Shown: positions 1,181 to 35,140 of the stretch, one piece after another
Position numbering within the stretch: the first letter of the stretch is position 1
Layout: every line of letters begins with the position of its first letter
Origin: Kryptolebias marmoratus
Taxonomy: Eukaryota > Chordata > Actinopteri > Cyprinodontiformes > Rivulidae
Reading direction: 5' to 3'
Assembly: GCF_001649575.2 (NCBI RefSeq)
Contig: NC_051445.1
Span: 26,712,161-26,776,160, forward strand
DNA length: 64,000 nt
Program-made: the position numbers and the translations under genes
The notes under the pieces: model-generated
What the model saw: the letters and a program-made list of their open reading frames with translations, nothing else
What the model was told of the DNA's origin: nothing
Databases searched by the model: none

Positions 1181-1234
1181 CCTGCCCACAGCCTTCAACT
1201 CTTTTATAAAACCAGGATTATGAGCTACAACAAC

Positions 1235-1290
1235 ATTTAATTTCCCTTTGGGATTAATAAAGTATTTTTTAATTGATTTGAATTTGAATG
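1235..1290 (+). repeat. LINE-like 3' tail
   Basis: The stretch TTTCCCTTTGGGATTAATAAAG followed by TTTTTTAATTGATTTGAATTTGAA is the typical end of fish non-LTR retrotransposons, which finish in a short simple repeat after GGGATTAATAAAG. It sits directly behind the H3 pseudogene. LINE-mediated retroposition of the histone message is possible, but a truncated LINE inserted next to it explains the arrangement equally well. Confidence 0.55.
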
Positions 1291-2575: not shown

Positions 2576-2730
2576 TATTTGCAATTCAGGTAAACTACTT
2601 GCCATTCATTGATTTTCAGACGGTAAACTAAATACAAGCAATATACAATGAAGCTATTTTTCTTAGAAAAAGCTCAACAAGTCAATCAGTGCACCAAAAA
2701 GAAACAAACTACTGTGTGTGGGGCATTGTT

Positions 2731-3262: not shown

Positions 3263-3489
3263 TAGTGCCCACCATCTTTTTTTTTTTTTTTCCTGCTTCT
3301 GGTGGAAGGCGGACGTGTTTCTTTTCTCTCTGTCTCCTCGTGCCCCCCCCCCATGCCTTTCCTTTTTCGAAGCCTCTTTTTACATATTTTCCAAAAAATT
3401 TAAGGAATATGGATCTGATCAGCTGGTTTCTCAACGCAATTGATACAATTTCCTCGACTGGGTGAAGGAGAGTCCAGTCTCAGGATATG

Positions 3490-6400: not shown

Positions 6401-6866
6401 CCTGTCAGTCCAGTGCAGCAAAGGTCTAGTTCTGGTCCCGTTAGTCCAGTACAGCAAGAGACTGGTCTGGATCCTGGTCCTGTTAGTCCAGTACAGCAAG
6501 AGACTGGTCTGGATCCTGGTCCTGTTAGTCCAGTACAGCAAAAGCCCAGTCCTGACACTGTTGATCCCACTCAACCTGAAATTAGTCTTGATTTTGATCT
6601 TGGTCTTGTGAGTCAACCAAAAATTGTTCTTAGTCTAGATCCTTGTCCCGTTAGTCCCATACAGTCAGATCCTGGTTCTGGTCCAGATCCTGATTGTGCT
6701 AGCTTCACACCTAGGGAAGATAGTCCTGAAGGGAATCTTGTTAGCCCTGTTCCCGACACCCTTAAAGAGGCTGAAACCAGTTCTAGTCCCTATCCCACAA
6801 GCCCTGCACAGCCAGATTCTGGACTTGGTCCGACAGAGGTCGAGGTGGAGATTGGACATGCTGGAG
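3491..6866 (+). CDS. kmt2c: kmt2c giant Ser/Pro-rich exon
   Basis: One open frame of about 1,125 codons, ending at donor GTGAGT (6867) in phase 1 and continuing in phase into the exon at 6944. Composition is dominated by Ser, Pro, Gln and Thr, with S-P dipeptides every few residues: early units of the form [11 protein letters not shown], then EEThQS/EDTLQS-like units, and late GPVSPVQQ units. There is no Cys/His cluster, transmembrane segment or catalytic motif. In human KMT2D a Pro/Glu-rich repeat block occupies the same place between the first PHD cluster and PHD4; human KMT2C has a shorter acidic linker there. I infer a disordered, phosphorylatable linker. The 5' border is missing at the N of 3490. 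The absence of any stop over 3.4 kb and phase continuity argue for a real exon. Confidence 0.85.
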
Positions 6867-7381: not shown

Positions 7382-7428
<47 letters not shown>

Positions 7429-13400: not shown

Positions 13401-14252
13401 TGACCCACCTGCAGGCTCTGGTCGAGCCTCTGACATCACCGCGCAGGTACCGCAGGTAAGCTCCACCCACTTTCTGTCAATGTGAGAGTATCAGGTGAGT
13501 CAGACTGACGAGCTGTTTCCTGTCTGCAGGTGTAAACCCAAACTGAAGCTGAGGATCATCAACCAGAACAGCGTGTCCGTCCTGCAGACTCTGCCGGACC
13601 CAGAGACGCCCACCGAGCTGGACCAGAACCGAGGTTGGTCCCTGTTGGTCCACCACATCGTCCTTAGACTGAAGGAGTTAAATCCTGATCCCAAGAACAA
13701 GTTTGTAAACGGTGACACCACTTCCTGTTCTTCAGGTGACCTGGACTGTGACATGAAATCTGACTCCAGCCCAGAGAGAGACTCCACCCACCTCGATGAC
13801 ATCACTAAAGACGCTGAGGTTACTGACTGCAACAAGAAGAGGAAGAGGAAACCCTACCGGCCAGGTGAGGAAGAGGGAGGGCCAGTCAGTCGATCACAGT
13901 GGAGCACCACCTCCTGCCTCCCCCTCACCATTTGCTGTCTCCCTCCCGCTCCTCCTCAGGTATTGGGGGCTTCATGGTGCGGCAGCGGGGCGGAAAGGCC
14001 GGTCTAAGCAGGAAGGACTCCACAGAGATGCGAGATCCAGGTAAGTCACCTGTGGCCACGCCCCCTTTATCATAAACACACGTTTGTGGAGAGAAAACCT
14101 GTCAAATGTTAACTCCACACCTGTCAGGTGTGCTGGATGCTGTCGTTTCTATGGAGACTGTGTCTGCAGCAGACCAGGTGATTGAGAAGGTGAAGAAGAG
14201 GTACAGGAAGAAGAAGACAAAGCTGGAGGAGGCATTCCCATCGTACCTGCAG

Positions 14253-14297
<45 letters not shown>

Positions 14298-20200: not shown

Positions 20201-23200
20201 GGGCGAGGACTCGGCTGTGAAGGACCTAGAGGACGTGGAGGTGAAGGACCTGGTGGACCTGAACTTGAACCTAGACCCAGAGGATGGTAGGAAGTCCATC
20301 TGTGTGAATCTGTGTCAGTCCTGTTTGATCTATGTGGACTCATTAATGTGGCGGTTCTGACTCAGGTAAAGAAGACCTAGACCTGGGTCCAAACGACCTC
20401 CACCTGGACGACTTCCTGCTGTCAGGGAAATTTGACCTGATCGCCTACGCTGACCCAGAACTCAACCTGGAGGACAAGAAGGACATGTTCAATGAGGAGC
20501 TGGACCTTGGTGACCCTGTGGAGGACAAGGAAGGAGGCGGAGCCTGTAGGAAACCAGATGGCCACATCCACCAGGTGAAGCAGGAAGTGAAGGAAGCGGT
20601 GAAAACAGAAGGTGTCAGCGATCCTTCGGCACCTCCAGGAGCTCTGGGGCCCGAAGCAGCGGGTCCCTCAGTTCTCTTCAAGGTTTGACCCTCAGTCTGA
20701 GCTAATACTCATATATATATATATCATTTTATTTTATGTTTTTAAAGCTAGTTGATTTTTAAGTGAGTGACTCCACCTCCCTCCAGGAGAAGCTGGAGGA
20801 CTCTGGTTCTGTTTCAGGTGCTGGTCTGGCCTTACAGGTCCAGTCTCTATCCACTGATCACCCCCCCATGCCTGCAGGTAAGCTCAGACCCCACTGTCCC
20901 CTGAAGAGCTGACAGTTGGATAAATGACTGAGCTTGTGACCCGTCTCCTCCATTTCCAGGGCAACAGGCCATGTTTCAGCAGAACCAGAGACCACTCGGA
21001 GCTGTCTCCATCCCCCACCCACAGGGTCCTCAGCCTCGTCTCCTTCTCAGCCCCCAGAACCAGCCTGCACACCCAGGGGCCTCAGCCCAGAACCAGAACA
21101 AATCCAGGTCTCTCCTTCTGGTGGAGCAGCCGCTCCTCATCCAGGACCTCCTGGACAAGGAGCGCCAGGAGCAGCAGCAGCAGAAACACATGCAGGCCAT
21201 GATCAGACAGAGTTCTGGATCTGAAGCTGGCTTCTCCAACATGGGTAAGACCAAAGTCCCAGTCGACCCAAACTCTGACAGAACTTCCAAAGAGCAAAGT
21301 CTCATTCCTGTGAACTTGTCCTGTGTTCAGTTTCAGCCCCTTCAGAACTCTGTGTGTCTGTTGGCTCTGCAGACTTTGACTCCATCTCAGACCCGATCAT
21401 GAAGGCAAAGATGGTGGCTCTGAAGGGGATCAACAAGGTGATGAGTCAGGGGAACCTGGGTCTGAACCCCGTCGTGGTCAACAGGTACTAGTGTGACCTG
21501 AACCTTTCAGGGTTCCTTCTTTCTGAACCCAGTTCCTCATCAGTTTGTGTGTGCTCACAGGTTCCAGCAGGCTCCGGTGGCCCCCGGCCCAGAGGGGACT
21601 CCTCAACCTCCTCACCTGGTTGGACAGGTATGTAGCTGCTCAACAGTGACTCAGCTGTTGTCCTTTGGACTCTGAATGTCTGTCATTTACAGGACGGGAA
21701 GTTGAACACTCAGCTGGTCAGACGGAACCCCCCCAGCTTCGGTCCGGGCTTTGTCAGTGAGTATCAGTATTAATTTAATACTGTGTGTTATTGGGGGGCT
21801 TCAGGCTCTGATCCAGCTCCATCTGTTCTCCCAGATGACTCCCAGCGGCGACAGTACGAGGAGTGGCTCGGGGAGACGCAGCAGCTCCTGCAGATGCAAC
21901 AGCGCCTCCTGGAGGACCAGATCGCCGCTCACAGAAAGGCCAAGAAGGCTCTGTCGGCCAAGCAGAGGACGGCCAAGAGGGTGGGCCGACCCTTTGCAGA
22001 GGAGGACGCCGCCCAGCTCCGCCACATCAGTGAGCAGCAGGGGGTGGTCCAGAAACAACTGGAGCAGGTAATGGGCTCTACCTGGACTGCAGTTCTCTGG
22101 AAAGGTTAGCTCAGCCAGGTTCTGACTTGGTTTGTTTTTTCAGATCAGGAAGCAGCAGAAGGACCACACTGAGCTGATCGAAGACTACAGGAACAAAAAC
22201 CAGCAGAGGCTCCTGCAGATGCCTCCTCAAAACCCCCTCGCCCAGCCCATGGTGCCCCTGCAGCCCCACCCAAATGGACCCGCTCCAGTCCACGCTCCAA
22301 ACGTTGCCTGGACGCCGGGCCCCAGTGCTCCAGGATCCATGGGACAGAGAATACCACCACACCTGCCTCCTCAGATCCCCCCCACCCTGTCTAACAACCC
22401 CCAGGGTCCCCGGCACACCCAGAACCCTCCAGCCATGGTTCCAGGCCTTACAGCTCCAACAGCTGGCTTCGCTGCAGGTCCTCGGGGCCCTCCAGGGGGC
22501 CCTCCAGGGGGCCCTTCAGGGGGCCCCAATGGCCCCACAGGGGACGGAGATGCACTAACGCCGCAGGTAACAGGACTGTTGTTCCCATGCTGCACCAGTT
22601 AAAGTTTGCTTATTTCTTTTTGAGTTGTAAAAACGGGGATATTCCAGTGTTTGTTCAGCATCGAGCTGCGACAGCCTCGGTAATGCCTCCGTCTCCTCTG
22701 CAGGTGAAATTTGACGACAACAACCCGTTCAGTGAAGGTTTCCAGGAGCGTGAAAGGAGGGAGCGACTGAGAGAGCAGCAGGAGCGTCAGAGAGTCCAGC
22801 TCATGCAGGAGGTAAAACCTCATCGTATTCTCAGAGAGACAGACAGGAGGTCTGGATCCACACCCAGAGTCCCCTGAAGGACCCTGAAGGACCCTGAAGC
22901 TGTTTCTTAGCTTCACTTCTCTGCTTCTTGTTGTTTGTTCTCAGGTGGAGCGTCACCGCGCCCTGCAGCAGAGACTAGAACTGGAGCAACAGGACCTCGT
23001 GGGGGCCTCCGTGGGCCCCGGGTCTGTAGCAGGTGCTATGTCTGGGCCCCGAGTCACACAAACTCCGGGTCCGGGAACAGGAACAGGTCCTGGAGGTCCA
23101 ATCAGAGCAAGTCTCAGAGGTGACGGACAATCTCAGATGCCATTCTTCAGTTCTAACTCTGAGATGGACTTCCTCCAGTCCTCCACAGCCTCCAGACCTT

Positions 23201-23799
23201 CACCTCAGGTTCAGGTTCAGGTTCAGGCTCTAGCAGGGGCACTGTTCCCCTCACAGACAAGTCTTCATCAGGGCTTCACAAGAGGAGCCCTGCACCCAGC
23301 TGCAGGACTGCTTCCAGGGGATGGTTCTGGTTCCCCCCTCCAGACCAGACCGAGGCTCCTGGCTCAGGTGCATCCTGCTGCAGCAGGGATGACCCCCTCC
23401 CATCCTGGAGGTCAGGGTCCTCAGTTCGGACACAACTCCAACTCTTCGTCACCCCCCTCGTTCCCCTGTTCCTCCTCTGGAGGGTCTGCCTCCATGATTC
23501 ACCCCCAGGCTGACATCACTGCAGATGGCAAACCAAAGAAGAAGAGCAGAAGAGGGGATGGAGATGACACAGGAGGACGAGGGGCCCATACGCCGTTGTC
23601 GCAACACTCTGAGGACATCACAGCCCCGCCCACTCCAGCTGTGTCTGACACCTCCTGCTCCACACCCACCAACCAATCAGAAAGCTCCTTCTCTGGTCTG
23701 GCTCCATCTACTGAGCTGGAGAGGCAGCTGTCAGCGAGAAGCTCCGTCCTGGTCTCTGAAGGCCAGAGAGGACCCCTGTCTGTTTTTCGGATGGAGGTC
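3491..23799 (+). CDS. kmt2c: kmt2c (MLL3-like) histone H3K4 methyltransferase, central exons (partial at both ends)
   Basis: Overview of about 40 exons on the plus strand, broken by a 932-N gap. Domains in order are: Ser/Pro-rich region, basic [18 protein letters not shown] block, PHD4-6, [13 protein letters not shown] segment, HMG box, Pro-rich DPY/PGTPRP region, acidic MFNEELDL region, [13 protein letters not shown] motif, [14 protein letters not shown] block and Gln-rich coiled coils. The order and wording match vertebrate KMT2C rather than KMT2D (e.g. [23 protein letters not shown]-type LL motif, DPYxxPPGTPRP units). KMT2C is the scaffold and catalytic subunit of the COMPASS-like enhancer H3K4 mono-methylation complex. 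The FYRN/FYRC and SET domains should follow 23799 and are not present; the N-terminus lies on the opposite strand at 23936-27278. Teleosts often keep two kmt2c copies and I cannot say which this is. Confidence 0.95.
6281..6542 (+). repeat. coding tandem repeat, 120-bp higher-order unit of 42-bp subunits
   Basis: Sequence at 6301-6400 recurs almost exactly at 6421-6520 (period 120). Inside it, 36-42 bp subunits encode [14 protein letters not shown] and [12 protein letters not shown]. The reading frame is kept because both periods are multiples of three. This nested identity indicates a recent duplication in the germ line, or possibly an assembly artefact. Confidence 0.9.
6944..7120 (+). CDS. 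kmt2c: kmt2c exon: Lys/Glu-rich linker
   Basis: Acceptor CTGCAG ends at 6943 and donor GTGAGC starts at 7121; the exon enters and leaves in phase 1. It encodes [18 protein letters not shown] followed by a Pro/Glu-rich stretch. No domain is recognised. It links the Ser/Pro-rich exon to the Pro-rich exon at 9966; the intervening intron contains the repeat-filled block bounded by Ns at 7381 and 9858. Confidence 0.8.
7382..7424. repeat. (TA)n microsatellite at a contig joint
   Basis: About 21 TA units directly after a lone N at 7381, inside a kmt2c intron. The N plus simple repeat suggests a gap-filling seam. Confidence 0.9.
7490..7560 (+). repeat. LINE-like 3' tail
   Basis: CCTGCAAATTTCCCCATTGT followed by GGGATCAATAAAGGTTATCT and a TTATCTTATTT run is the standard end of fish non-LTR elements (CCC-x-GGGATCAATAAAG plus a short tandem tail). 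No upstream reverse-transcriptase sequence is attached, so this is a heavily 5'-truncated insertion. Confidence 0.65.
7925..8300. mobile_element. foldback element with ~95-bp inverted arms
   Basis: The stretch 7930-8027 (TTATTAACAACTTGCATAA through GATACATGTAACAACATGGT) is the reverse complement, with about 15 mismatches, of 8203-8298 (ACATGTATCGCATTTGTCT through GCCAGTTGTTAATAAAG). The ~175 bp centre has no ORF of note. This is either a MITE with long terminal inverted repeats or two head-to-head copies of a short repeat. It lies in the repeat-filled block of the kmt2c intron. Confidence 0.8.
8390..8700. repeat. degenerate AT-rich satellite built on (A)AATATTTAG
   Basis: The phrase AAATATTTAG and close variants recur every 20-35 bp (e.g. 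GCTAAATATTTAGTTAGCAA, GGAAAATAAATATTTAGGTA). Units have diverged and the spacing is irregular. There is no coding potential. Confidence 0.8.
8701..9206. other. AT-rich intron filler, nothing recognised
   Basis: About 500 bp of low-GC sequence inside the block bounded by the Ns at 7381 and 9858. No ORF or RNA gene is supported. Confidence 0.4.
9207..9269 (+). pseudogene. tRNA-Pro-like pseudogene, anticodon region deleted
   Basis: This 63-nt stretch aligns along its length with eukaryotic tRNA-Pro (72 nt): an A-box-like TTGTAGAAGTGT, then GAGAGGTCCCAGATTCAATT as variable and T-arm (B-box-like), then CCTGGATGAGC as the 3' acceptor side. A 9-nt deletion removes the anticodon loop and part of its stem, so it cannot be a functional tRNA. 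A second, full-length relative lies at 36097-36168, and the ~300 bp that follow are similar in both places. The pair therefore belongs to one repeat family, probably a tRNA-Pro-derived SINE. Confidence 0.7.
9590..9660 (+). repeat. copy of a hairpin-bearing dispersed repeat
   Basis: CTTTGAAAGTTGCGTCTTTG followed by CAATCTTTAAAAAACGTACG and ACTTTCAAAGATGTTACGTT. CTTTGAAAGT and its complement ACTTTCAAAG can pair around an internal loop. The same sequence recurs at 35141-35180 and 35877-35935. Confidence 0.8.
9966..10690 (+). CDS. kmt2c: kmt2c exon: Pro-rich and acidic linker
   Basis: Acceptor TTTGTAG ends at 9965 and donor GTAAGA starts at 10691. The frame begins [13 protein letters not shown], continues with Pro-rich and Ser-rich stretches, an acidic segment ([20 protein letters not shown]), then [20 protein letters not shown] and [10 protein letters not shown], and ends with Pro/Thr-rich sequence. 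No folded domain is apparent. It precedes the conserved KIGMGKP exon, so it corresponds to the variable linker before PHD4 in KMT2C. Confidence 0.85.
10763..11957 (+). CDS. kmt2c: kmt2c exons: conserved basic block before PHD4
   Basis: Three exons, 10763-10864, 11201-11326 and 11838-11957. The first encodes [20 protein letters not shown], nearly identical to the matching KMT2C segment. The second carries [12 protein letters not shown] and a conserved FWSMKV end. The third encodes [16 protein letters not shown] and further RG/GR repeats, an RGG-like basic stretch ending SLPVVPG. All junctions keep phase. The RGG/basic segment is a likely nucleic-acid or nucleosome contact region (inference). 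Confidence 0.92.
12034..13455 (+). CDS. kmt2c: kmt2c exons: PHD fingers 4-6
   Basis: Exons 12034-12135, 12241-12345, 12527-12708, 12782-12946, 13035-13144, 13222-13281 and 13353-13455. After an acidic lead ([20 protein letters not shown]) comes [20 protein letters not shown] with [12 protein letters not shown] (PHD4), CTVCEACG with [17 protein letters not shown] (PHD5), and [13 protein letters not shown] with [20 protein letters not shown] and CSLC (PHD6). Zinc-ligand spacing is intact in all three. In KMT2C/D these fingers read histone tails, with PHD6 known to bind the H4 tail around H4K16. The later exons carry the conserved [14 protein letters not shown] segment. CA/TG microsatellites lie just upstream of several acceptors. 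Confidence 0.95.
13531..15624 (+). CDS. kmt2c: kmt2c exons: post-PHD conserved region
   Basis: Exons 13531-13633, 13736-13864, 13960-14040, 14128-14252, 14343-14532, 14783-14860, 14932-14967, 15197-15322, 15401-15433 and 15529-15624. Recognisable blocks are [30 protein letters not shown] then [78 protein letters not shown] and [14 protein letters not shown]. All are in KMT2C order. The KKRKRK and KKRYRKKK stretches look like nuclear-localisation signals. Very small exons (33 and 36 bp) were accepted because phase and family sequence continue through them. (CA)n tracts lie at 14255-14294 and 15626-15652, directly after donor sites. Confidence 0.92.
15719..16580 (+). CDS. kmt2c: kmt2c exons: HMG box region
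   Basis: Exons 15719-15979, 16067-16140 and 16368-16580. The first holds [12 protein letters not shown] and [20 protein letters not shown], then [15 protein letters not shown]. The second and third join to give the HMG box core [41 protein letters not shown] conserved [20 protein letters not shown] end follows. The box lies immediately after the conserved WEKEE segment, as in KMT2C. This domain contributes to chromatin binding. The next exon begins at about 16727, four bases before the N gap. Confidence 0.95.
16731..17662. other. sequencing gap (932 N) inside kmt2c
   Basis: A run of 932 Ns. By family order it should hold the Gln/Lys-rich segment that follows EWKLRQ in KMT2C, up to the Pro-rich region that resumes at 17663. 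The flanks are CT-rich (CTCCTC runs), which may explain the failed assembly. The apparent long frames across the Ns are meaningless. Confidence 0.95.
17663..19138 (+). CDS. kmt2c: kmt2c exon: Pro-rich DPY/PGTPRP repeat region
   Basis: Open from the gap edge to donor GTAGGA at 19139. The frame reads [20 protein letters not shown], then repeats of the type DPYxxPxGTPRP ([63 protein letters not shown]), the hallmark repeat of vertebrate KMT2C in this position. It ends with [13 protein letters not shown]. Two stretches, 17910-17984 (75 nt) and 18794-18877 (84 nt), have GT...AG borders, multiple-of-three length and no stops, so they may be either exon or small introns. Likely intrinsically disordered. 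Confidence 0.9.
19228..20877 (+). CDS. kmt2c: kmt2c exons: Gln/Pro-rich and acidic region
   Basis: Exons 19228-19529, 19604-19794, 19891-20286, 20366-20682 and 20787-20877. They encode [20 protein letters not shown] (coiled coil), [60 protein letters not shown], and [20 protein letters not shown] followed by NEELDL. The IELRHRAP and FNEELDL motifs are strongly conserved in KMT2C. The acidic VKDL/NLNLD stretch resembles a transactivation-type segment (inference). Confidence 0.92.
20960..22067 (+). CDS. kmt2c: kmt2c exons: LLxxLL-type motif, [14 protein letters not shown] block, coiled coil
   Basis: Exons 20960-21244, 21373-21484, 21561-21627, 21693-21756 and 21835-22067. They encode [20 protein letters not shown] (contains LIQDLL, a nuclear-receptor-box-like motif), the block [19 protein letters not shown] with [24 protein letters not shown], and a Gln-rich coiled coil ([40 protein letters not shown]). 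Each phrase has a direct counterpart in KMT2C, which separates it from KMT2D. Confidence 0.94.
22144..23799 (+). CDS. kmt2c: kmt2c exons up to the gap (truncated)
   Basis: Exons 22144-22566, 22704-22811 and 22945 to at least 23799. They encode [20 protein letters not shown], Pro/Gly-rich sequence with a [14 protein letters not shown] run, [20 protein letters not shown] with [16 protein letters not shown], then a long exon with basic [13 protein letters not shown] and [15 protein letters not shown]. The last exon is cut by the N run, with GGATGGAGGTC at the border; a donor may lie at AG/GT here. About a third of the protein, including ePHD2, FYRN, FYRC and the catalytic SET domain, should follow and is absent. 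Confidence 0.93.
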
Positions 23800-23899
23800 N
23801 NNNNNNNNNNNNNNNNNNNNNNNNNNNNNNNNNNNNNNNNNNNNNNNNNNNNNNNNNNNNNNNNNNNNNNNNNNNNNNNNNNNNNNNNNNNNNNNNNNN
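23800..23899. other. 100-N scaffold gap
   Basis: Exactly 100 Ns, the usual placeholder for a join of unknown size. To its left kmt2c is on the plus strand; to its right the N-terminal exons of the same gene are on the minus strand. The right contig starts with a (CA)n run at 23900-23917. Confidence 0.95.
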
Positions 23900-23935
23900 C
23901 ACACACACACACACACAGCAGCAGGGAGGAGCTAC

Positions 23936-24407
23936 CTGTGGCATCGAACAGTGATTGGACGTTAACGTCATGTGGAAGGCCGATGGGTCCGAGCTGCTTG
24001 ATGAACTCTGAGGAAGACTGGTCCTCTGAAAGAGACAGGTACACACACAGGTACACACACAGGTAAACACACACACCTGCAGCTGCTGGACCAGTTGATG
24101 GAACACAGAAGGGACAACTCACCACACACGTCTGGACTGCTGCACCTGAAAACGAACAACCAGATCAGCTAATTATTCAAACAGTCTGAATGCTCAGGTA
24201 GCGCAACCAGGAAGTGAGGTAACTCACGTGGGTGGGGCCTGGTTGCCGCGGTAACAGTGGTCGTGGCAGTCATCGTCCCGGTCAGAAGAGGCGCGGCGGT
24301 TGAGGATATGGAGCGGGATGTACCCAGGCGTCGGGCCGAACACCAGCAGGCCGCCCTGGCCCAGAGGAGGCTGGTCGCCACGGTAACAGAAGGCACACTG
24401 CTTCACC
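23936..24407 (-). CDS. kmt2c: kmt2c exons 5-7: first part of extended PHD 1
   Basis: Minus-strand exons 24228-24407, 24123-24145 (23-nt micro-exon) and 23936-24025, joined in phase. They encode RVKQCAFCYRGDQPPLGQGG with the following LLVFGPTPGYIPLHILNRRA, then CSSPDVCEDQSSSEFIKQLG and PIGLPHDVNVQSLFDATG. CAFC is the first zinc-ligand pair of ePHD1, and the GLPxxxxVQSLFDATG phrase matches the KMT2C segment just before the remaining ePHD1 ligands. The exon ends with donor GTAGCT at 23935; the next exon should lie beyond the contig edge at 23900. Their strand is opposite to the rest of the gene. Confidence 0.9.
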
Positions 24408-24469
24408 CTGTAGGGAGACAGGTCAAAGGTCACAGCCTGGTCTCTGTCCACAGACAGCATGGCTGAAAC

Positions 24470-25180
24470 CATGGCAACAGTCTCCTTGGTTCCTCTTTAG
24501 AACCCTGTAATAACTAGTTTAAACCTACTAACTGGACCCGGAGCAAAGACCAGAACCTGATCTGGACCCACAAGTCCAGTCCAGCACTGGGATCTGGTCC
24601 ATGTTGGGTTTTATGACAAACAGACTGAAGTGGATCAGTTCTGAGTTTAGAACTAGTCTCCACAGTGAATAATGATTAAAAAACTTAAAAAACTTTATTT
24701 TACTTTAAACAGAATTTATTAAAATCTTTTCTGTTAAAACTTTATAATTTTTAAAATAAATGATAAAAAAACTAATTTACTCAAAAATCTATTTTTCATA
24801 AAAACCTTTGATTAAAAAAAACTTTTTAAATTTAAAGAAAGGATCCCATTCACCACAGTTTGATCTGTCCTACAGTCAGTTTCTGATTTACATCCTGAGC
24901 CGGTACCAGCAGAACCCCTCTCCATGTCAGACCCAAACTAACCTGAGCTCTGTTCCAGAACCATCAGGTGTGACCCCAGAGTTCTACTCTGATCGGGTTC
25001 TGTAAACACCTGCTAGTAAACCCAATCAGAACCACAGCCTGAGCTCTGACCCAGTTCTGGTCCACAAACTGAAGGTGGACTCTCTGTGGACGCTCATATT
25101 GGCCCAGTGAGCTGTCAATCAGAAGCTAAGGATGCTGGGTGACCCATGAGGGCTGTTTCCATGGAAACCCACGCGGAGAC
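24470..25180. other. kmt2c intron 4
   Basis: About 700 bp between coding exons on the minus strand. 24660-24845 is an AT-rich, AAACTTT-rich low-complexity tract; the rest carries scattered GAACC/GGTTC words. No embedded gene is seen. Confidence 0.6.
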
Positions 25181-25184
25181 TCAC

Positions 25185-25800
25185 CGTTTTTTGGTCTGAC
25201 CCAGGCTGGGGGTGGGCGACCCCCCTGAGTCCTCTGAGAGGGACCTCTGGAACAGGGGGGACAACGAGTCCTCGTCCTCGAGTCGTACGCAGGGGGACAC
25301 TGGAGGACTGGAGCGGGGACTTGTGACTGGACTCGGCTGCATGGGACTGGCTCCGCCCCCCTCAGTCTCTGCGGTGACCCTGCTGAGACTGCTGATGGAC
25401 TCCTCGGGGACGGGGCTGTGGCTCAGACTGGGCTGGTCTTCCTCTGATGGGTCAGGATCTGGTTTGAGGTCCGGTGCAGGAGAGACCGGGTGAACCTCCT
25501 CGGGGACAGGGTCTGTGGGCGGGGCAGCAGGAGCGGGACTGGTTCTGTTGTCCTCCTCAGAACAGGGAGGTGGTTCTGGGCTGCAGCTTGGGACAATCCG
25601 GTCAGGATCCGGCTCAGGCTGAGGACTTAGCCTGTCCTGGCCGGGTTCAGGATCCGGGTCTGGATTGGGGTTTGTGTGCAACTTCCTCCTGGAGGAGGAC
25701 CGCCGACGTCCCACCGCCTTCACCTCCTTTGGCTCCTTCGGCTCCTTCGCCTCCTTCGCCTCCTTCGGCTCTGTGGAGATCACAGCAGACCCCCGAGGTT
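25185..25800 (-). CDS. kmt2c: kmt2c exon 4: charged Pro/Asp/Glu-rich linker
   Basis: Minus-strand exon from acceptor TTGTACAG (at 25801) to donor GTGAGT (at 25184), 616 nt. It opens EPRGSAVISTEPKEAKEAKE with an A/P-KE repeat, then basic GRRRSSSRRK, a long Pro/Asp/Glu-rich stretch (NPNPDPDPEPG and similar), and closes with SPLFQRSLSEDSGGSPTPSL. The last phrase parallels the RSVSEES segment that precedes CAFC in KMT2C. It is longer than the mammalian equivalent, which pushes CAFC to about residue 306. Confidence 0.88.
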
Positions 25801-25819
25801 CTGTACAAGAACAGACCAA

Positions 25820-26363
25820 AGAAAAAGATCAGGAACAGATTTAGACCCTGACTGGTCCATCAGGTTGTCGCTGGTTCTTGATTATTCTTGATTGTCAATC
25901 ATGTCATCAGCTAAATGAATAACATCCAAATCAGATAAACTGAGAACTAATCCTAACAGAACTAAATACAGGATGCAGATAAAAGGGTTTTTGTCATTGG
26001 ATGACATTATGTTGGTAATCCTGCTCTCAGAAAATGTGCTGTGTGTGAACAGCTGATATATGTTATAAAGAGTGTAGGTTAAGTTATATAACATTTAGAA
26101 AAGTTCCAGTCTCCATTATCACATGTTAAACAGTTTGATTAACACCTAAATGTTAATCAAACTTTTGTCATGCTGGAGTTAGAGCTAACTGTGTTTTGTA
26201 CTTTTTATTTGTTTACGTTTGTGGGATGCCTAAAATAAATAAACTGAAACTAAAATGATTTTTGGAGAGACAGAAATAAAACGGTTGTTAGTGGCAGCTC
26301 TAGTTTCCACCCAACAGAGACAGGACGTGTTCAGGTGTGGGCGGAGCCTCTGCTCTCACTCAC
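25820..26363. other. kmt2c intron 3
   Basis: About 540 bp, AT-rich between 25890 and 26290. No gene or repeat that I can name. Confidence 0.5.
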
Positions 26364-27278
26364 CTGTCCTTTGGGGCCGGCTCTTCTCCGCAGCCTTGGT
26401 GCTCTCTTCATCCTCCACCTGTGCCCGCCCTCGGCTCCGCCCCCTGCAGAAGCACAACAGGTCATGTGATCAGAGCTGATGCTGTTGCCATGGCAGCAGA
26501 CACAAACTTAACCTGTGGTTCTGGTCCAGGATGGGATCCAGAGGTGATTTAGTCTTTAAGTGTGAAAACATTTAAACTGGTGGCTCAGACAGGACTTCTG
26601 TGTTTTTATTAAATGTAAAGAATAAATCTGATCCAGTGAAGTCTGCAGTTAGAGTCAAAAGATGTTCTCAGGGTCCACTGGCTGCAGCAGGACCTGAATC
26701 AGAACAACCACCGCTTGTTTGTTTGGACCATGTCTCCTGAGGTTCTGAGAGGTTTGGCTTTTAAATCTGTTCTGGGATCAGTCTTCTGCAGCTGACTGAT
26801 AAACATGTTTAGTCTGAGTTTGTTCGAGGTCAGAAACATGTCACCTTATCATTTCTACTGAAGCAGCTTCAGTTCTCAATGTTCCTCCGTCTGCTGTCAG
26901 ACGAGGTGAAACCATCTCATGAAGGCCTGCATCAAACCACAGACTGAGCATGCCCCACCCTCAGGACTGACCCGGTTCTTCAGGTCCATATGCTCTCAGA
27001 CAAATGGAACCAGTACCTGCCCTGCCCTCAGTAGTCACATCATGTCCTAACACTTACTTCTTCCTGGACTTTGGCGGCGGCGGAGGCGGAGGAAGAGGAG
27101 GAGGAGGGGTGGGAGGAGCAGAGCGCCCGTTGCTCCCATCCTTCCGAGGACGCCCGCGAGGCCGTCTCTCAGGGGCGGGGCTTGACGCTGCAGCTTTGGC
27201 CAGCTGAGCGCTGCGTCCCGCCCGTGTGACGGGAGGGGGCGGTCCTCTGTCCCGAGGCTCCTGAGCCTCAGATGGCAT
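26364..27278 (-). CDS. kmt2c: kmt2c exons 2-3: start codon and AT-hook
   Basis: Minus-strand exons 27058-27278 (coding from the ATG at 27278) and 26364-26443. The protein starts MPSEAQEPRDRGPPPPVTRA and reaches ERRPRGRPRKDGSNGR, a classical AT-hook (RGRPRKDG) shared with human KMT2C, followed by a poly-Pro run and KSRK. The next exon gives KGRSRGRAQVEDEESTKAAE, matching the PRSRGK-VEDED segment of KMT2C. The start is well supported: reading back in frame through the acceptor (TTTTTACCCAG) into exon 1 gives a TGA before any other ATG. Phases 2 and 1 at the two junctions agree. Confidence 0.9.
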
Positions 27279-27289
27279 TCTGGGTAAAA

Positions 27290-28815
27290 AAAACAAAAAC
27301 AGCAGAGACACAAGGTCAAAGGTCAATGAGGTTATCCAAAAAACTGGTTGGTTCTGATACCTTCACATTTCTAACATTAAACAACTAAGGAACTTGGAGA
27401 ACCAGTTCAGCACTCTAGGATCTGTGTCTGGTTCGGTTCTGCTTGAGTTCTGGTGGTCAACAGATGAAGGTGTTTTATTTATTTGTTCTTCTCTGGTTCT
27501 GTGAACCCTCAATCCAACAGAATGAGTCCAAACTCTGATCAGCTGATCACTGACCCATTTATTGATTATTCCATCAAGCAGAACCCAACAGAACAGCAAG
27601 AGGACCAGAAACAAGAACGTCTCCTGACCACACGAAAACTTGAAGTTCTTTGTTCTCTACAAGAACATTCAGGACCACCAAACCCACTGGACTGGACTAA
27701 AATCTCCAAGAAGAACCACTGGAATCTCAAACTGAAGTATTAGAACCTACTAAAACACCACCCTGGGTTCTGGGAGACTTATAATATTCTCCAACTGGAC
27801 CTTTATGGGAATGAGATTGAACCAGAACCTCCAAAGAACTGATGGAACCTCAAACTGAAACATTAGAAGTAGAACACTGGGGTCTACTGGAACCTTTAGA
27901 ATTATTAGAACCTCTGACTAAAACATCAGAACATCTTAAAATGCCTCTCGGAACTCTTACAGAATCTGTTCACCTGCTGGTCTGAACTGAAACCTCCTTT
28001 AGAACCACTAGAACCTCTCACTGAAACAATAAACTGATCTAAAACATTATTAGAACCATCAAATCATCACTAGAACCAATAAAGGGAAGATCTGCACCAT
28101 CTAAAACTTAACTGGAACCTCTAAACATAACAATCAAAACATCAATAGAACCATTAAATGGAAAATCAGTACCGGAATCTAGAACCAAAAGCCCAACTGG
28201 AACCCTCAATCATTACATGAGAAATATCACTAGAACCTAAAACTGGATAATCAGAACCAACTAGAACACAACTGTAATCTGTAGTTGGAACATCAGAACC
28301 ACCTAAATCACAACTACAAATAGCAACTGAATCTTCAGAACCCTCAACAAACTGAAACTTTAGAACTTTTTAGAACCTGTAACCATCTGGAATACAATTT
28401 GAACTTTCTTTTAACATCAGAACCACTTACAAACAATCCTAGAAACTATTACATGGAACTTCAAAATCATCTAGAACCTGTAACTGAATCATTAAACAAA
28501 CATCTAAAACAACTAGAACTTGAAAACCCTTAGAACTTGTAACGGGAACTTGGGAACACTCTAGAACCTATAGTTGGAACAGAACTGGAACCTCCTTTAG
28601 AACCCGGCCCTGCACAGCTGACCTGAGTGCAGCTCAGCTCTGATGAAGATAATCTCTGACCAGATCGATAGTACTGATCAGTGATCTGGTACCTGTAGCT
28701 AACCCTCTGGCTAGCATCACGCTAACAGCCCCATCTCTCAAAAGGCTGATAGCCGACTGTCTAACGACTGTTAGCAGGCTCCAGGCGGTGGGCAGCAGCC
28801 CCCTCTGTTAACACG
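27290..28815. repeat. kmt2c intron 1: degenerate GAACC-rich sequence
   Basis: From about 27,360 to 28,620 the plus strand repeats short words of the form (A)GAACC(T) separated by 8-20 bp AT-rich spacers such as CTAAAACATC or AACTGAAAC. Spacing is irregular, unlike a clean tandem array. The same word is common in the other noncoding parts of this contig. I see no gene in it. Confidence 0.7.
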
Positions 28816-28817
28816 AT

Positions 28818-29047
28818 GTTAGCTTCAATCTGTGTAAAAACACAGCAGTTAGCAGCTAGCTGTTAGCTTCAGTCCGTGTAAAAACACAGCAGTTAGCAGC
28901 TAGCTGTTAGCTTCAGTCCGTGTAAAAATATAGCAGTTAGCAGCTAACTGTTAGCTTCAGTCCGAGTAAAAACACAGCAGTTAGCAGCTAGCTGTTAGCT
29001 TCAGTCCGTGTAAACACATAGCAGTTAGCAGCTAGCTGTTAGCCTCG
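28818..29047. repeat. 44-bp tandem repeat, about five copies
   Basis: GTTAGCTTC begins at 28818, 28862, 28906, 28950 and 28994, with a partial copy at 29038; the period is exactly 44 bp. Each unit reads GTTAGCTTCAGTCCGTGTAA then AAACACAGCAGTTAGCAGCT, and is rich in the partly palindromic GTTAGCAGCTAGCTGTTAGC. It lies about 170 bp downstream (in transcription direction) of the kmt2c first exon. Confidence 0.95.
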
Positions 29048-29217
29048 GACCGCCCTGTTCACTTCTCCGTTAGCGTTAGCATTAGCTATGGCTTCACCGC
29101 CCCGCAGTAAACGCTGCTGACAGGCGGGCAGTGAGCGGGGACAGCCGGCCAGACAGAACCAGAACATGCAGGTCAGAAGTGACCAGGTTCGGGGAGAAGC
29201 CAGAAGAAGGTTCTTAC

Positions 29218-29460
29218 TGATTTGATGCGGTTCTCTTTTTCCTCTCCAGCTTTCAGCCGAACTTAGAGCGACGTGTTCAAGAGCGAACTTCTTCCACAGA
29301 TAACATCTGCTTCACCGGTCTGCCGTGACCCGGTTCTCCGTGGAAACATCCCCGTGGGCCGTGGAAGAAGAAGAACGCACTCTGCGCGCAGAAAATCGGT
29401 GAAAAATTAAAGTTGAAGCGGTCGCTCCGTCATGGAGGCCATGTTTGGGAGCGACCGAAG
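29218..29460 (-). promoter_or_regulatory. kmt2c: kmt2c non-coding exon 1 and core promoter region (approximate)
   Basis: A donor GTAAGA reads on the minus strand from 29217, preceded by GC-rich, CpG-containing sequence without a long ORF. I place a 5'-untranslated first exon here, upper limit uncertain. A YY1-like AACATGGCCTCC lies at 29448-29434 (minus). 29419-29457 forms a nested inverted repeat: CGGTCGCTCC pairs with GGAGCGACCG, and inside it CATGG with CCATG. Two ATGs in this hairpin share a short frame of 11 codons ending in TAA. No TATA box is seen, as expected for a housekeeping chromatin gene. Confidence 0.55.
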
Positions 29461-29744
29461 TACCGCCTGTCAGCACCAGCAGGAGAAGTAGATCCTAGAA
29501 AACACTTACTACCGAAGCGCAGGTCCAACCGGAACCAGAACCAGACTGTTTCTTAACACCAGGATAAAGACGACAATCGACCTAAGCGGAGCCCGGTTCG
29601 GTGTCAGTGTGATTCTTTTCGGTGTCTGACTCGGTTCGTTTGTTTGTGTTCTGTAAAAAGTGTGTGTGACCCCGCGGAGGGATATAGAAGAGGGCTGCTC
29701 CAGTGAAGCGGTCTGTCATCAGACTGGAGAATCCCGGACCGGAT

Positions 29745-29945
29745 CAGAACCCAGAGGATCCGGACTGAAACGACCAGAGAAACCCGGACCGAACTACAGG
29801 ATCCGGACTAGAACCCAGAGGACCCGGACCGAACCAGAGGATCCGGACTGAAACCGACCAGAGAAACCCGGACCGAACCAGAGGATCCGGACTGAAACCG
29901 ACCAGAGAAACCCGGACCGAACCAGAGGATCCGGACTGAAACCCG
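29745..29945. repeat. second 44-bp tandem repeat, about four copies
   Basis: GAACCAGAGG begins at 29831, 29875 and 29919 (period 44), with a more diverged copy before it. Units read GAACCAGAGGATCCGGACTG then AAACCGACCAGAGAAACCCG. It lies between the kmt2c first exon and the 3' end of xrcc2. Open frames across it are by-products of the repeat. Confidence 0.92.
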
Positions 29946-30245
29946 GGACTTTTCTGTGCACCTGTGGTCCCCTGCACGTTTCCACCTGATTGGAGGTTGG
30001 GCATCAAGGTACCAATCATTACCTGAACAGGTCCGTCCACTCAGGTGGGTTTCTGGTACAAAGTTAAAAGGAAATTCTAGACCTGTAGTACAGGATCTTC
30101 AGAACTCAGAACAAAAACCATGAGAACCACCTAAACCCACACAGAGGCTTCTGAGAACCAGCTGCAGAACCAAACACTGACCCGGGATCCAAACAAGAAG
30201 AGGTTTTATTAAACTATATCTGAGTCCATGTTACAGAGGTCTGCT

Positions 30246-30251
30246 TTTATT
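30246..30251 (-). terminator. xrcc2: xrcc2 polyadenylation signal
   Basis: AATAAA on the minus strand within CAAATAAAAGC, about 75 nt after the xrcc2 stop codon. A second AT-rich candidate lies near 30205. Confidence 0.6.
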
Positions 30252-30324
30252 TGAAACATCTAATAAATACAAAACAAACGTGTCTACAGTAAACAGGAAG
30301 TAGCTCAGATAAACAGGAAGCAGC

Positions 30325-32756
30325 TCAGATAAACTCCACCCCTCCATCTGTCACTCTGAACGAGCTGGTCCTGGAACCCTTCGTCCCCGTTGATGATAAT
30401 GAGGAGGAGGTGCAGTGGACCCTGAAGACTCGGCGCCTCCTCTGCTCCCCGTCTCCTCGGTCTGAGCCAGCCTGGTCGGGGTCAGCTTCCTGTCTGGAGC
30501 ACAGCAGTCGGTGGGTGACCAGGCGTTGCCAGGGGCGACAGAGGAATGGGCGGTCCGTCTCCGACGAAGAGGGTCCGCTGTTGCTCCTCCTGATGGCGTG
30601 GCAGGTAGCAAAGATGGTGATCCTGTAATCCCTGAGGAGGAACCACCAATCAGAACATTAGATTATGAGTCACAGGTCCATATTAGAAGTTTCTCATGGT
30701 CCAACAGAACTGGAACAGTTTGTTCTTCTGAAATCTCACAATAATCTGTCAGAACTTCAAACTAAATGACAAGAACCACCTAAAGGAGCGGTTTGGACAC
30801 TAGAACCTCAGTAAGGCCTGAGAACCCCAAATTGGAACCTCCTACTGTGTCATTGATAGAACTTCTTAAAAAGTGAAGAACAATGATATTGGGTCAAAAG
30901 AACCTTGAATAACAACCTAATGCAAGAAAACTAGCCCTCCTCAAAACCACTGGAACCTCCTAAAAATAATCCAGGACCTCCTACTGTATGACGAGAACAT
31001 TTTATTTGACCACTTGGACCTGTAGATGATGATCAGAACCTTCCTCTTCCCAAAACCTCTTAAAATTCATCACATCCTAAGAAATGACCAGAACCAAACT
31101 GGGTCAGACTGTTAACAACTGGACTTCTCAACGTTCTCAACTGTTGAACTGAAGCTCCTAAAGAACCACAGAGGATCTCCTTAACCAGAACCTGTAGATC
31201 CAAAACCTTTTTATCAGAAAAATATCTTCCTACTGCTGAAGGAACTCTTGAAGAACAACTGCAACCTCTACCACTAGAACCTCCTGATGAACCAGTGCAA
31301 CCACCGTTACTCCTACTCTGTCCAAAGAACCAGATCAAACAGACCTCTTTGGACCCACCAGAACCTCCTAAAGGGTCACTAGAACTTTCTTCAGATGATC
31401 CACCTGAGCAGTCGTCCCAGCAGCTCTGAGCTCTTGCTGAGCTTCTCTTCCTGCTTGGAGATGCTGGCCCCGCCCTCACCGCGGTCGGACCAATAAAACG
31501 CTGACATGCTGTCGATGAGGAGGAGCGCCAGGCTCGACCGCGAAGATAAGGTGGTCTCCAGGAAGTGCAGGGTGAGGAGGAGCTGGGAGGAGGAGGAGCA
31601 GTGAACAACCAGGAGGCGAGAGAGACACAAATGCAGCGCCGCCTCATCGGACCCAGCTGAGGACGGGCTGGTGGAAAGACCTGGGTCCAGAAAAACACAC
31701 AGACCTGATTCAGTTCTGGAACTGTGAAAACCATAAAAGCAGATCTTATGAACCCCTGATACCTACCCTTCAGTGTGGTTCTCCCTTTATTGAGTCTGGT
31801 ATCCAGGATGCTGACCAGCCGTAACATGTCCAGACTGTAGTCTGTGTCCACAAACACCACGTCCACCTCGAGGCCGCCGGCAGCCTCCGGCAGAACACAG
31901 CGACTCAGCAGGTGGTACAGCAGCTCCGTCTTACCTGAAAAACACTCAGAGTTTACAGACCAGACTGAGCAGGACCTGCAGAGCTGCCAGTGGACTCACC
32001 TGTCCCCTCCGGTCCATACACCTCCACCACCTCACCTGACAGAGCCAAACAGACACAACGCAGTCAGACGCAGCATGGCAGCATCCCCCAGCTGACAGGA
32101 AGTGGGTGTGGCTAATAATCACCATGGTCAGGTCCTCCATCATCAGGGAACAGACGAGGTTCGATGTCCTTCAGACAGCGCCGAGCCTCCAGACGAGCAA
32201 ACAGCTGTGGAGGCAAAGTACCAGAACATAGACTGTACCACAGCATCCGAATATCATCATCACCAGAACATAGACTGTACCACAGCATCAGAATATAAAC
32301 ATCACCAGAACATAGACTGTACCACAGCATACAGCATCAGAACATAGGCTGTACCAAGTTCCTGTTTTCAGATTGTAGAACCTTCCGTTCTCCTGCCAGC
32401 TCTCAGATGTTCCTTCAGAGGTTCTTCAGCCAATGGAGGAACCCATGAGTGACGTCACAGGACCTGGTTCTTTCAGTGGCTTCTGTTTATTATTCACGAT
32501 TTAAATATGGTGGATGTGTCTTTATTTTATTATTTATTTAAGGTGCTCATTTTGTTAGTTTTATCTTTAAAGATTAAAAACCTGCAGTGATTCTAAAACA
32601 GCCAAAACTCAGCCACAGCTGGACTTTTATTTTGAAAACCCGTGCAGCGGCTGTTCCGGTGGTTAAAACCGCCATAGTTTCAAACAAACAGTCTTCCGAC
32701 GTCATCACCCTCACCTGCCGGCGGCACAGACTCACCTGCGTGCCGCTTTCACTCAT
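30325..32756 (-). CDS. xrcc2: XRCC2, RAD51 paralogue of homologous recombination (complete)
   Basis: Six minus-strand exons: 32736-32756, 32123-32204, 32000-32035, 31767-31934, 31404-31680 and 30325-30631. They sum to 891 nt, exactly 297 codons with the TGA. The protein starts MSESGTQ, then [20 protein letters not shown], the Walker A motif GPEGTGKT (split by an intron after GTG), [20 protein letters not shown], the Walker B strand [27 protein letters not shown], and ends DGGVEFI; each phrase matches human XRCC2 (280 aa). XRCC2 with RAD51B, C and D forms the BCDX2 complex that helps RAD51 load on single-stranded DNA in the nucleus. Human XRCC2 has three exons; the last is divided into four here. 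The region between FATCHAI and GVEFI is more diverged. Start chosen from the family N-terminus. Confidence 0.95.
32221..32358. repeat. 42-bp tandem repeat in xrcc2 intron 1, three to four copies
   Basis: CCAGAACATAGACTGTACCA begins at 32221, 32263 and 32305, with a shortened diverged copy from about 32337. It lies just upstream of exon 2 (about 16 bp from the acceptor), where repeat-length change could affect the branch-point region. Confidence 0.9.
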
Positions 32757-32814
32757 TTCAACGCGAGCTTCATCCTCTTCTTCCTCCTCAGCAGCGCGCC
32801 GCGCACGATCGCTT

Positions 32815-33022
32815 TCACTTCCGGTTCCGGCTGCTCGGAGCAGGGCGGTACCGGGACGTTTATCCGGTTCGGTTCGGTCCGGTATCGGTACAAAATGGAT
32901 CCAAACTGTTTTACTGATGAGACATACAATTTGAAACATTGGTTTTTGAAACTGACGAAGAATAAATTTAATATTCCCTGGTTACACTTCCGGAGCTTTT
33001 CACAATAAAGTTACACTTCCGC
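32815..33022 (-). promoter_or_regulatory. xrcc2: xrcc2 promoter with ETS-like sites
   Basis: Upstream of the xrcc2 ATG the minus strand carries CCGGAAGTG at 32824-32817 and again at 32993-32985, and the related GCGGAAGTG at 33022-33014. These are ETS/GABP-type sites common in TATA-less promoters. The first lies in a GC-rich segment with GGTTCGGTTC-like repeats about 60 bp from the start codon. Transcription start not determined. Confidence 0.5.
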
Positions 33023-34887
33023 CTAACAAATAACAAGACGGAGCTTTTCACAATAAAATGAATCGAATCTGAGTTTTGTTTGAACTTCAAAATAAAATGC
33101 CAGATTAAAAACAAATATTTTTATGAGATAGATCTTTTCTTTTTGATGTAAAATATTTTTAATCTGAAATGGAGACACTACACCTGGACAGGTACAAGTC
33201 CACCACAGGACCAGACTAACACCTGAGGTTAGTTAGGCACCTGTGTGGTTCCGGACCGTCGGGCGAAACAACCCAGCTCAGATCTGGACCCGGAACCCTC
33301 CTTCCCTTCAGTCATCTCCTGAATCAGAATCAGACCCTTTCACTCTGATCAATCCGTTTATTGACAGCAGATCAACATCAGACCAGCATCTGATCACATG
33401 ATCAGGTCCAAACCGGCAGGTGAGCCAATCAGAGGCTCCTCCTCCACCTGCAGCAGGTGTGCCTGCAGCTCAAACCAACAATAAACTCAGTGTTTGAGTC
33501 CAAAGACAGAAAACTAACAGATAGACAGAAATACAGACACATTTCCTGACTGACCTGCAGGGGGCGACACTTTACACCAAACAGCTGACTGTCAAGTTTC
33601 AGCTTCCCGTTTCCCCATGAAATCTAGATTATTACAAAATGTAAATGTTTGATCAAAAAATAAATGTACCAAGCAGGTTTTGGCACAGTGTGGTGCGTTC
33701 AAGTGACTCATCTCAGCTGGTTTTTCGCCTCAGGTTGGTTCTGGTTAGCTGCTGTTTGGATCAGCTGAAGCTTCACCCATCTTTGAGTTCAGCAAACAGC
33801 CTGACTGATCATTCTCACAAACTTATTTGTTGAAGAAAAAAAAAACAGAACAAGAAGAAAAATATGATTTTTGTTTTTAAAAACCTTTTTTGTTGAAAAA
33901 ATGAAAAATATTCACAAAAAGAATTAGAAAAAAAATCTGAAACCTCTTTAAAAGGATGAGAAAACAATGGGAAACCCTAAACCCAAAATCCAGACTGTTT
34001 AAACCCATCCTGTTTTTAGTCACTGAAATGACTGACTGCACCTGAACGCACCACAGTTTAACAGGATGGTTTGGACCTGATCCTGGATCAGCTGCCTCCT
34101 CAGTCTCTCAGTATTTACAGTAAACACAAGTGTCTTTATTTCACCTATTATTATAGAAGAATCTTTCTTTACAAATATAAACAGTCTGAGAGCTGCAGGT
34201 GATAAACACAGAAAACAACAACGAATAATGAAAAATACAAACAACAACAGGAAATAAAAGCTCTTTTTCCCTTTAAACTCAAACATCTGACCGTCTCTGG
34301 TCAGGTTTACATCAGGTTGAAATAAAGACTCTTAGGACTGATGAAGGCCATCCTCCTCCTCTTCATCACAAACATTAACGTGGTGAACGCCGGAGGAGTC
34401 GTGTCCTGATGGGGGCGCTACAGACAACTTAAAGAACAAAACGTTTCCAAGAACAACAAGAACACAAGACGAGCGCAGGAGGAAGAAGAGCATGAGTTCA
34501 AACGGTTCTGGCTCAGAATTCCACCTGCTGAAACACCTGAAACTTCAGCAGGTCATGTGACCACATGACCACACACCTGACCTGAACAAACCAGGAAACA
34601 CAAAGTGCTACGATAGAAATAAGGATGGCTAACAGGCCAGCAGCTCCACACGCTTGTTTTTAATAAATAAAACTACTTTTCTGTGGAGCATTCTGAATAA
34701 AATAACTTTTTATGCCTTCTAGCTAACGTTGTGCTTCACTTTCTCCAGCAGACTGAGCTAACATGCTAACAGACTCGTAGCCTTAAAGGTTAGAAACTTG
34801 GCAGGAACAAAAAGCTAACAGGCTAACAGCTAAGTGGCTGGTGAGTAGCAGACAGCAGGCTAACGGGCTAACGGGCTAACGGCTCCA
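33023..34887. other. intergenic region between xrcc2 and the actr3-type gene
   Basis: About 1.9 kb, probably partly 3' untranslated sequence of the actr3-type gene (minus strand). It is AT-rich between 33600 and 34300. A triple ACGGGCTA repeat (34858-34882) and GCTAAC-rich words lie next to the stop codon. No further coding sequence recognised. Confidence 0.5.
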
Positions 34888-34983
34888 TCAGGACATGATG
34901 CCGAACACGGGGTTGTGTCGGCAGATACTCGGACCGATCTCATCGTAGTCCTTCTTCGAGTGACACACCTGGAAAAACTCCGG
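34888..34983 (-). CDS. actr3b: actin-related protein 3 (ACTR3B/ACTR3), last exon
   Basis: Minus strand, acceptor CCACAG at 34984, stop TGA at 34890-34888. It encodes [20 protein letters not shown] then [11 protein letters not shown], the highly conserved C-terminus of ARP3. ARP3 is the actin-like core subunit of the Arp2/3 complex that nucleates branched actin filaments in the cytoplasm. The paralogue cannot be read from 31 residues; ACTR3B is preferred because it neighbours XRCC2 and KMT2C in human. The exon upstream is lost in the 100-N gap at 35041. Confidence 0.88.
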
Positions 34984-35040
34984 CTGTGGACACAAAAACA
35001 CAACAAACACCCAGTGTCAACAACAACAAACACCCAGTGT

Positions 35041-35140
35041 NNNNNNNNNNNNNNNNNNNNNNNNNNNNNNNNNNNNNNNNNNNNNNNNNNNNNNNNNNNN
35101 NNNNNNNNNNNNNNNNNNNNNNNNNNNNNNNNNNNNNNNN
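35041..35140. other. 100-N scaffold gap
   Basis: Exactly 100 Ns, right end of the contig that carries actr3b, xrcc2 and the kmt2c N-terminus. Left flank: tandem CAACAAACACCCAGTGT. Right flank: begins inside the hairpin repeat TACGACTTTCAAAGATG. Confidence 0.95.

What the first reader, a model, noticed from the sequence alone, without database searches (positions are those of the whole stretch)
23800..35140. kmt2c is split across two strands: contig 23900-35040 is inverted and misplaced
Exons for the N-terminus (AT-hook, pre-ePHD1 linker, CAFC, FDATG) run on the minus strand from 27278 to 23936. Exons that must follow them in the same protein (Ser/Pro region, PHD4-6, HMG box) run on the plus strand from 3491 to 23799. 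The minus-strand contig is bounded by two 100-N gaps. Flipping it and moving it left of 3491 restores actr3b, xrcc2, kmt2c in one direction. Automatic annotation would report two unrelated genes here.
Basis: partly seen in the sequence, partly recalled or inferred. Interest (0 to 1): 0.85.

Follow-up and report, generated by a model that had tools for sequence, protein, structure and literature searches.

The report
A killifish gene cut by misassembly
One large gene for a chromatin enzyme looks broken in this killifish genome because a short piece of the assembly was put in backwards and in the wrong place; this is almost certainly an assembly error and not biology.

Summary
The genome is taken to be the mangrove rivulus Kryptolebias marmoratus (its XRCC2 record lies on a contig exactly as long as ours). 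Contig 23900-35040 carries, on the minus strand, an actr3-type last exon, xrcc2 and the first six coding exons of kmt2c; the rest of kmt2c runs on the plus strand. The next exons (ePHD1-PHD3) lie outside the window, at C16:26708588-26711058, so the contig belongs there, not directly left of 3491. The two pieces join in phase. In 5 of 8 long fish relatives tested, residues on this contig end at N and those on the other start at N+1; a sixth leaves a 2-residue gap and two lack this part. The pieces fit the same kmt2c duplicate; another kmt2c lies on C20. The breaks fall at gaps. Window 1-3489 is probably a second misplaced piece. Moving the contig does not restore the gene: about 1,190 C-terminal residues, including SET, were not found in the assembly. 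Which block is inverted, the contig or the scaffold to its left, cannot be decided without reads. Interest is low.

The parts
23900..35040 (-). Contig C (11,141 bases, no internal N) that reads actr3-type last exon, xrcc2, kmt2c 5' exons on the minus strand
   Evidence: gap map; exons
27058..27278 (-). kmt2c coding exon 1 (MPSEAQEPRD..., AT-hook RPRGRPRKDG)
   Evidence: spliced alignment of P0001, P0002, P0008 (P0008 ends it at 27070)
26364..26443 (-). kmt2c coding exon 2
25185..25770 (-). kmt2c coding exon 3 (linker)
   Evidence: with P0001; P0002 splits it and P0008 starts it at 25575
24228..24407 (-). kmt2c coding exon 4 (KQCAFC...)
24123..24145 (-). kmt2c coding exon 5 (short)
23936..24025 (-). 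kmt2c coding exon 6, ends FDATG with one base of the last codon; then 36 intron bases ending in a (TG)n run before the gap
30331..32204 (-). xrcc2 (exons 32204-32123, 32035-32000, 31934-31767, 31656-31404, 30631-30331)
   Evidence: 95% to P0144
34891..34983 (-). actr3-type last exon (31 codons) with acceptor AG; contig ends 57 bases upstream in a tandem repeat
3491..6866 (+). kmt2c Ser/Pro-rich exon, starts inside an 11-residue coding repeat; a GTGAGT donor follows at 6867
10769..23799 (+). kmt2c body, PHD4-6, HMG region, proline-rich regions and coils; 37 aligned blocks to 23730; frame open at the contig end
1..3489 (.). Contig lying between two halves of one coding repeat; begins with a 45-base genomic repeat; probably misplaced
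23800..23899 (.). 100-N scaffold join (false neighbours)
35041..35140 (.). 100-N scaffold join; no credible actr3, xrcc2 or kmt2c match within 35141-64000

Best explanation
This is a scaffolding artefact. Contig 23900-35040 and the scaffold that ends at 23799 hold one gene, a second kmt2c duplicate of K. marmoratus, and they are joined in the wrong relative order and orientation across a 100-N gap. The true order is the actr3-type gene, xrcc2, kmt2c coding exons 1-6, then the exons at C16:26708588-26711058, then the Ser/Pro exon at 3491 and the body to 23799. A further stretch that encodes the C-terminus is missing from the assembly. Likely cause (inferred): short-read contigs broke at repeats and GC-rich stretches, and an 11-kb piece carries too few genetic markers to be ordered or oriented. 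Shown here: the pieces, their complementarity and the collinear relatives. Inferred: the cause, and that the missing end exists in the fish.
For: Breaks coincide with contig ends: FDATG exon 36 bases from its end, ePHD1 exon at its contig's first bases, body ending in an open frame, actr3-type exon 57 bases from its end. The split codon joins in phase across the two contigs. Of 8 long relatives tested (chosen from 120 listed, 247 found), 5 match the two contigs at adjacent residues (493/494, 369/370, 365/366, 255/256, 496/497), 1 with a 2-residue gap (239/242), and 2 (P0031, P0032) show no match on either contig. Short relatives show the same join (P0002 364/365, P0008 326/327). The pieces fit the same duplicate: N-terminal piece 65-89% to six b-type against 31-43% to eight other records, ePHD piece 68-78% against 48-50%, PHD4-6 83-90% against 72-81%. 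Of 8 species with a contig length listed for both a b-type kmt2c and an xrcc2 record, 5 have the same length (Caranx with consecutive locus tags, Solea, Anableps, Aulostomus, Takifugu flavidus). The published SK assembly used ALLPATHS-LG and RAD-map anchoring (PMC5223126, passages). Our genome is 303,968 bases longer, about 3,040 x 100 N. The map has 1,019 bins from 49 F2 (PMC4825644, passages); about 0.16 markers are expected on 11.1 kb if they were even. Another likely misassembly in this species is in print (CYP2X25, PMC5751882, passages).
Against: No read, Hi-C or optical data were available. P0031 and P0032 do not cover the junction. In Oryzias melastigma, Gambusia affinis and Fundulus heteroclitus the listed contig lengths for kmt2c-b and xrcc2 differ, possibly from different assemblies. 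By bit score the zebrafish record P0044 ranks above b-type P0028 for PHD4-6, and the coil piece separates the duplicates poorly. The identity of G000 with the published assembly rests on one exact contig length and on total size.
Confidence: 0.94

Rival explanations
1. A real inversion or translocation broke kmt2c-b in K. marmoratus, leaving a 5' fragment and a body without SET.
For: The C-terminus was not found in the whole assembly and only one actr3-type exon was found there, as a decaying region would look.
Against: Every break lies at a gap or contig end. PHD4-6 is 83-90% identical to six b-type relatives and the frame stays open in long stretches; open spliced exons count little because the aligner penalises stops and demands GT/GC-AG.
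Confidence: 0.04
2. Contig C is correctly oriented and the left scaffold (C16:26672203-26735959) is the inverted block; flipping that block in place restores the exon order without moving C. This is a variant inside the artefact reading, so its odds overlap with the 0.94.
For: Gives the same exon order with one change; no call distinguishes it.
Against: The left scaffold begins with 36 kb carrying melanocortin-receptor genes, which would then sit inside one kmt2c intron unless that part is itself misplaced.
Confidence: 0.25
3. The 5' fragment and the body come from two different kmt2c duplicates.
For: The genome does hold a second kmt2c on C20.
Against: Pieces are complementary and non-overlapping, and the N-terminal, ePHD and PHD4-6 pieces have their highest identities with the same duplicate.
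Confidence: 0.02

Closest known systems
Map-anchored short-read assembly misjoin (for example CYP2X25 in the same species, PMC5751882, passages seen)
   Same: Gene parts on wrongly placed scaffolds in a K. marmoratus assembly
   Different: Here one gene is split and its parts face opposite strands
KMT2C (MLL3) second teleost duplicate, for example P0026 Aulostomus, P0028 Poecilia formosa, P0029 Lampris
   Same: Same order from the CAFC region to the coils; b-type sequence
   Different: The assembled copy lacks about 1,190 C-terminal residues that 5 of the 8 long relatives carry
K. marmoratus kmt2c on C20
   Same: Same family; on one strand from PHD2 to SET over the 60 kb fetched
   Different: Other duplicate (79-80% to two a-type C-termini, 53-54% to three b-type); its N-terminus was not fetched

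Membership tests
KMT2C (b-type teleost duplicate) | AT-hook N-terminus and CAFC/FDATG region | tested here: met
   65-89% to six b-type relatives over exons 4-6
KMT2C (b-type teleost duplicate) | ePHD1 and PHD1-3 | tested here: met
   C16:26708590-26710526, outside the window
KMT2C (b-type teleost duplicate) | PHD4-6 and HMG-box region | tested here: met
   by sequence similarity, no structure or domain scan made
KMT2C (b-type teleost duplicate) | ePHD2, FYRN, FYRC, SET | tested here: inconclusive
   Not found in the assembly (which scored 39 of 50 candidates); contig ends in an open frame at 23799, so missing sequence and real loss are not distinguished
Scaffolding artefact | All breakpoints at gaps or contig ends | tested here: met
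Scaffolding artefact | Relatives are collinear across the break | tested here: met
   5 of 8 at adjacent residues, 1 of 8 with a 2-residue gap, 2 of 8 not covering it
Scaffolding artefact | Reads or Hi-C contradict the present join | not testable with these tools
   no reads held
Real inversion | Contiguous sequence across a breakpoint | tested here: not met
   100 N at both ends of the contig
XRCC2 | Best matches are XRCC2 | tested here: met
   154 proteins at E<=1e-80; in the 120 listed, the names that state a function read XRCC2, X-ray repair complementing 2, or RecA family; the rest are hypothetical, unnamed or blank
ACTR3B rather than ACTR3 | Paralog-specific residues | tested here: inconclusive
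   31 residues only; best PDB match is Arp3

The most novel reading that the evidence does not exclude
The K. marmoratus kmt2c-b really lost its catalytic end, and perhaps was broken by a rearrangement, leaving a KMT2C-like reader protein without methyltransferase in a selfing vertebrate lineage.
Probability: 0.05. Interest if true: 0.5.

Novelty: not a real feature. Interest (0 to 1): 0.15.

Why it matters
It shows where this reference genome should be corrected, and warns that kmt2c dosage, synteny or gene-loss claims for this fish would be wrong. Records of this duplicate can be damaged in relatives too: 3 of the 8 long records examined list no SET, FYRN or FYRC domain, and one is named 2D.

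Tried and rejected
Rfam on the window: no family at gathering score. Pfam on 20 chosen ORFs of window contigs 1-3489, 7382-9858 and 35141-64000 gave only two matches, both below cut-off (DDE_3 at 59829-60266, SepQ at 46343-46669), so no neighbouring gene fixes the order. A 45-base exact overlap between the left contig end (C16:26708586) and the window start first looked like proof that they are neighbours, but the same 45-mer occurs 13 times in the genome, these two included, so it is only suggestive. The idea that the missing C-terminus sits on C8 or C20 was rejected: three b-type C-termini are 50.5-51.5% and 53-54% identical there, while two a-type C-termini are 79-80% identical to C20. Paper searches: kmt2ca+kmt2cb found 2 papers (listing only); xrcc2+actr3b+kmt2c found 4 (listing only); kmt2c+Kryptolebias found 0; kmt2c+teleost+ohnolog+duplicat found 0. 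Papers seen as passages only: PMC5223126, PMC7642942, PMC13283775, PMC5751882, PMC4825644. Human gene order (XRCC2 and KMT2C in the same direction, ACTR3B opposite) is recalled, from no call. The names a-type and b-type are mine.
Full report
What is there. The window is G000:C16:26712161-26776160, plus strand, in a 680.65-Mb genome of 300 contigs. Its xrcc2 product matches K. marmoratus XRCC2 at 95% (my splice model is imperfect), and that record's longest contig, 32,119,081 bases, equals the length of C16. I take the genome to be K. marmoratus, most likely the public assembly ASM164957v2 (named in PMC13283775, passages).

Contig 23900-35040 lies between two 100-N gaps. On its minus strand it reads an actr3-type last exon, xrcc2, and six kmt2c coding exons ending in FDATG. 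On the plus strand the window holds the kmt2c Ser/Pro exon from 3491 and 37 aligned blocks from 10769 to 23730, with the frame open to 23799. My aligner penalises stops and demands GT or GC donors and AG acceptors, so open exons and splice sites are partly built in. The independent support is the protein identity and the plain tblastn matches.

Where the pieces belong. The exons that follow FDATG are outside the window, at C16:26708590-26710526 on the plus strand. Their contig begins at 26708588, and the codon split at the FDATG donor (one base, G) is completed in phase by its first two bases, GT. One search listed 120 of 247 proteins; I aligned 8 of them (P0024-P0026, P0028-P0032) to the 164-kb region. 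Of these, 5 of 8 give adjacent residues on the two contigs, P0030 leaves a 2-residue gap, and P0031 and P0032 show no match on either. Short relatives P0002 and P0008 give the same junction. Hence contig C should meet C16:26708588.

A second probable error. The right end of the ePHD1-PHD3 contig encodes repeats such as EEQHQSPAPST in an open frame, and the contig at 3491 begins with repeats of [11 protein letters not shown]. Both are 11-residue coding repeats of a similar pattern, so the exon most likely runs straight on. The 1,102-N gap and window 1-3489 between them are then misplaced, or are an insertion that I cannot exclude.

One gene, one duplicate. Relatives split into two groups by summed bits. 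Four percomorph records (P0081, P0087, P0096, P0131) score 5,993-6,593 on C20 against 999-1,137 on C16; I call these a-type. Zebrafish P0044 also scores higher on C20, 2,862 against 1,468. Six records (P0025, P0026, P0028, P0029, P0031, P0032) score best on C16, 2,025-2,612; I call these b-type. The N-terminal, ePHD and PHD4-6 pieces have higher identity with all six b-type records used (P0024-P0026, P0028-P0030) than with any of the eight others. By bit score, however, P0044 ranks above P0028 for PHD4-6, and for the coil piece P0024 and P0025 fall below the a-type records, apparently because their annotation is damaged there (one search shows their ends). C8 holds a third gene, from the ePHD1 region to SET, probably kmt2d (name by elimination).

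Synteny. Eight species have a contig length listed for both a b-type kmt2c record and an xrcc2 record. In 5 of 8 the two are the same (Caranx melampygus, with consecutive locus tags, Solea senegalensis, Anableps anableps, Aulostomus maculatus, Takifugu flavidus). In 3 of 8 they differ (Oryzias melastigma, Gambusia affinis, Fundulus heteroclitus), which may reflect different assemblies.

What is missing. The C-terminus after 23799, about 1,190 residues in the five relatives that have it, was sought genome-wide with human and with Sander sequence. Only C20, C8 and more distant relatives on C1, C2, C4, C5, C12, C14 and C16:15.1 Mb matched (46 of 46 candidates scored, 39 of 50 scored). Human and b-type C-termini are 64-67% identical in 5 of 8 records, so one search should have seen it. 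Likewise actr3-type genes are near-complete on C6 and C23, while C16 shows only the last exon. Both absences lie at contig ends, which fits missing sequence. Real loss is not excluded.

Why the assembly would do this. The published SK-strain assembly is ALLPATHS-LG with 3,072 scaffolds and 680,349,455 bases, improved with medaka as a guide and anchored to 24 linkage groups by 9,904 RAD markers (PMC5223126, passages). The map has 1,019 bins from 49 F2 fish and uneven marker density (PMC4825644, passages), a mean of about 670 kb per bin. An 11.1-kb piece expects 0.16 markers if they were even. Chromonomer, a tool of this kind, needs two map positions to orient a scaffold (PMC7642942, passages); I do not know that it was used here. 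The size difference of 303,968 bases is close to 3,040 gaps of 100 N. That the 100-N gaps are map- or guide-based joins is inference.

Verdict. The split of kmt2c is an assembly artefact with confidence 0.94. Its scientific interest is low. The residual novel reading, a real loss of the catalytic end of this duplicate, has a probability of about 0.05 and is testable by one cDNA.

Noticed in passing
L026:6188-6808 (+) and L027:6550-7185 (-), C16 left of the window: Rhodopsin-type receptor genes, the first of which matches melanocortin receptor 5 structures at E=6e-93, lie in the 36-kb contig left of the kmt2c exons.
   Followed up: partly
window 1-45 and C16:26708542-26708586: A 45-base repeat sits exactly at both contig ends; 13 exact copies genome-wide.
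   Followed up: yes
window 3490, 7381, 9859; C16:26708587: Single N bases look like contig joins; the sequence after 3490 is a 33-base tandem repeat and after 7381 a (TA)n run.
   Followed up: partly
window 7382-9858: A 30.5% G+C contig inside a kmt2c intron between richer contigs; its placement was not tested.
   Followed up: no
P0024, P0025 (Fundulus, named 2D), P0030: Three of eight long records of this duplicate list no SET, FYRN or FYRC domain.
   Followed up: partly
window 34891-34983 against 30331-32204: The actr3-type exon and xrcc2 face the same way on one gap-free contig; in human ACTR3B faces the other way (recalled).
   Followed up: no
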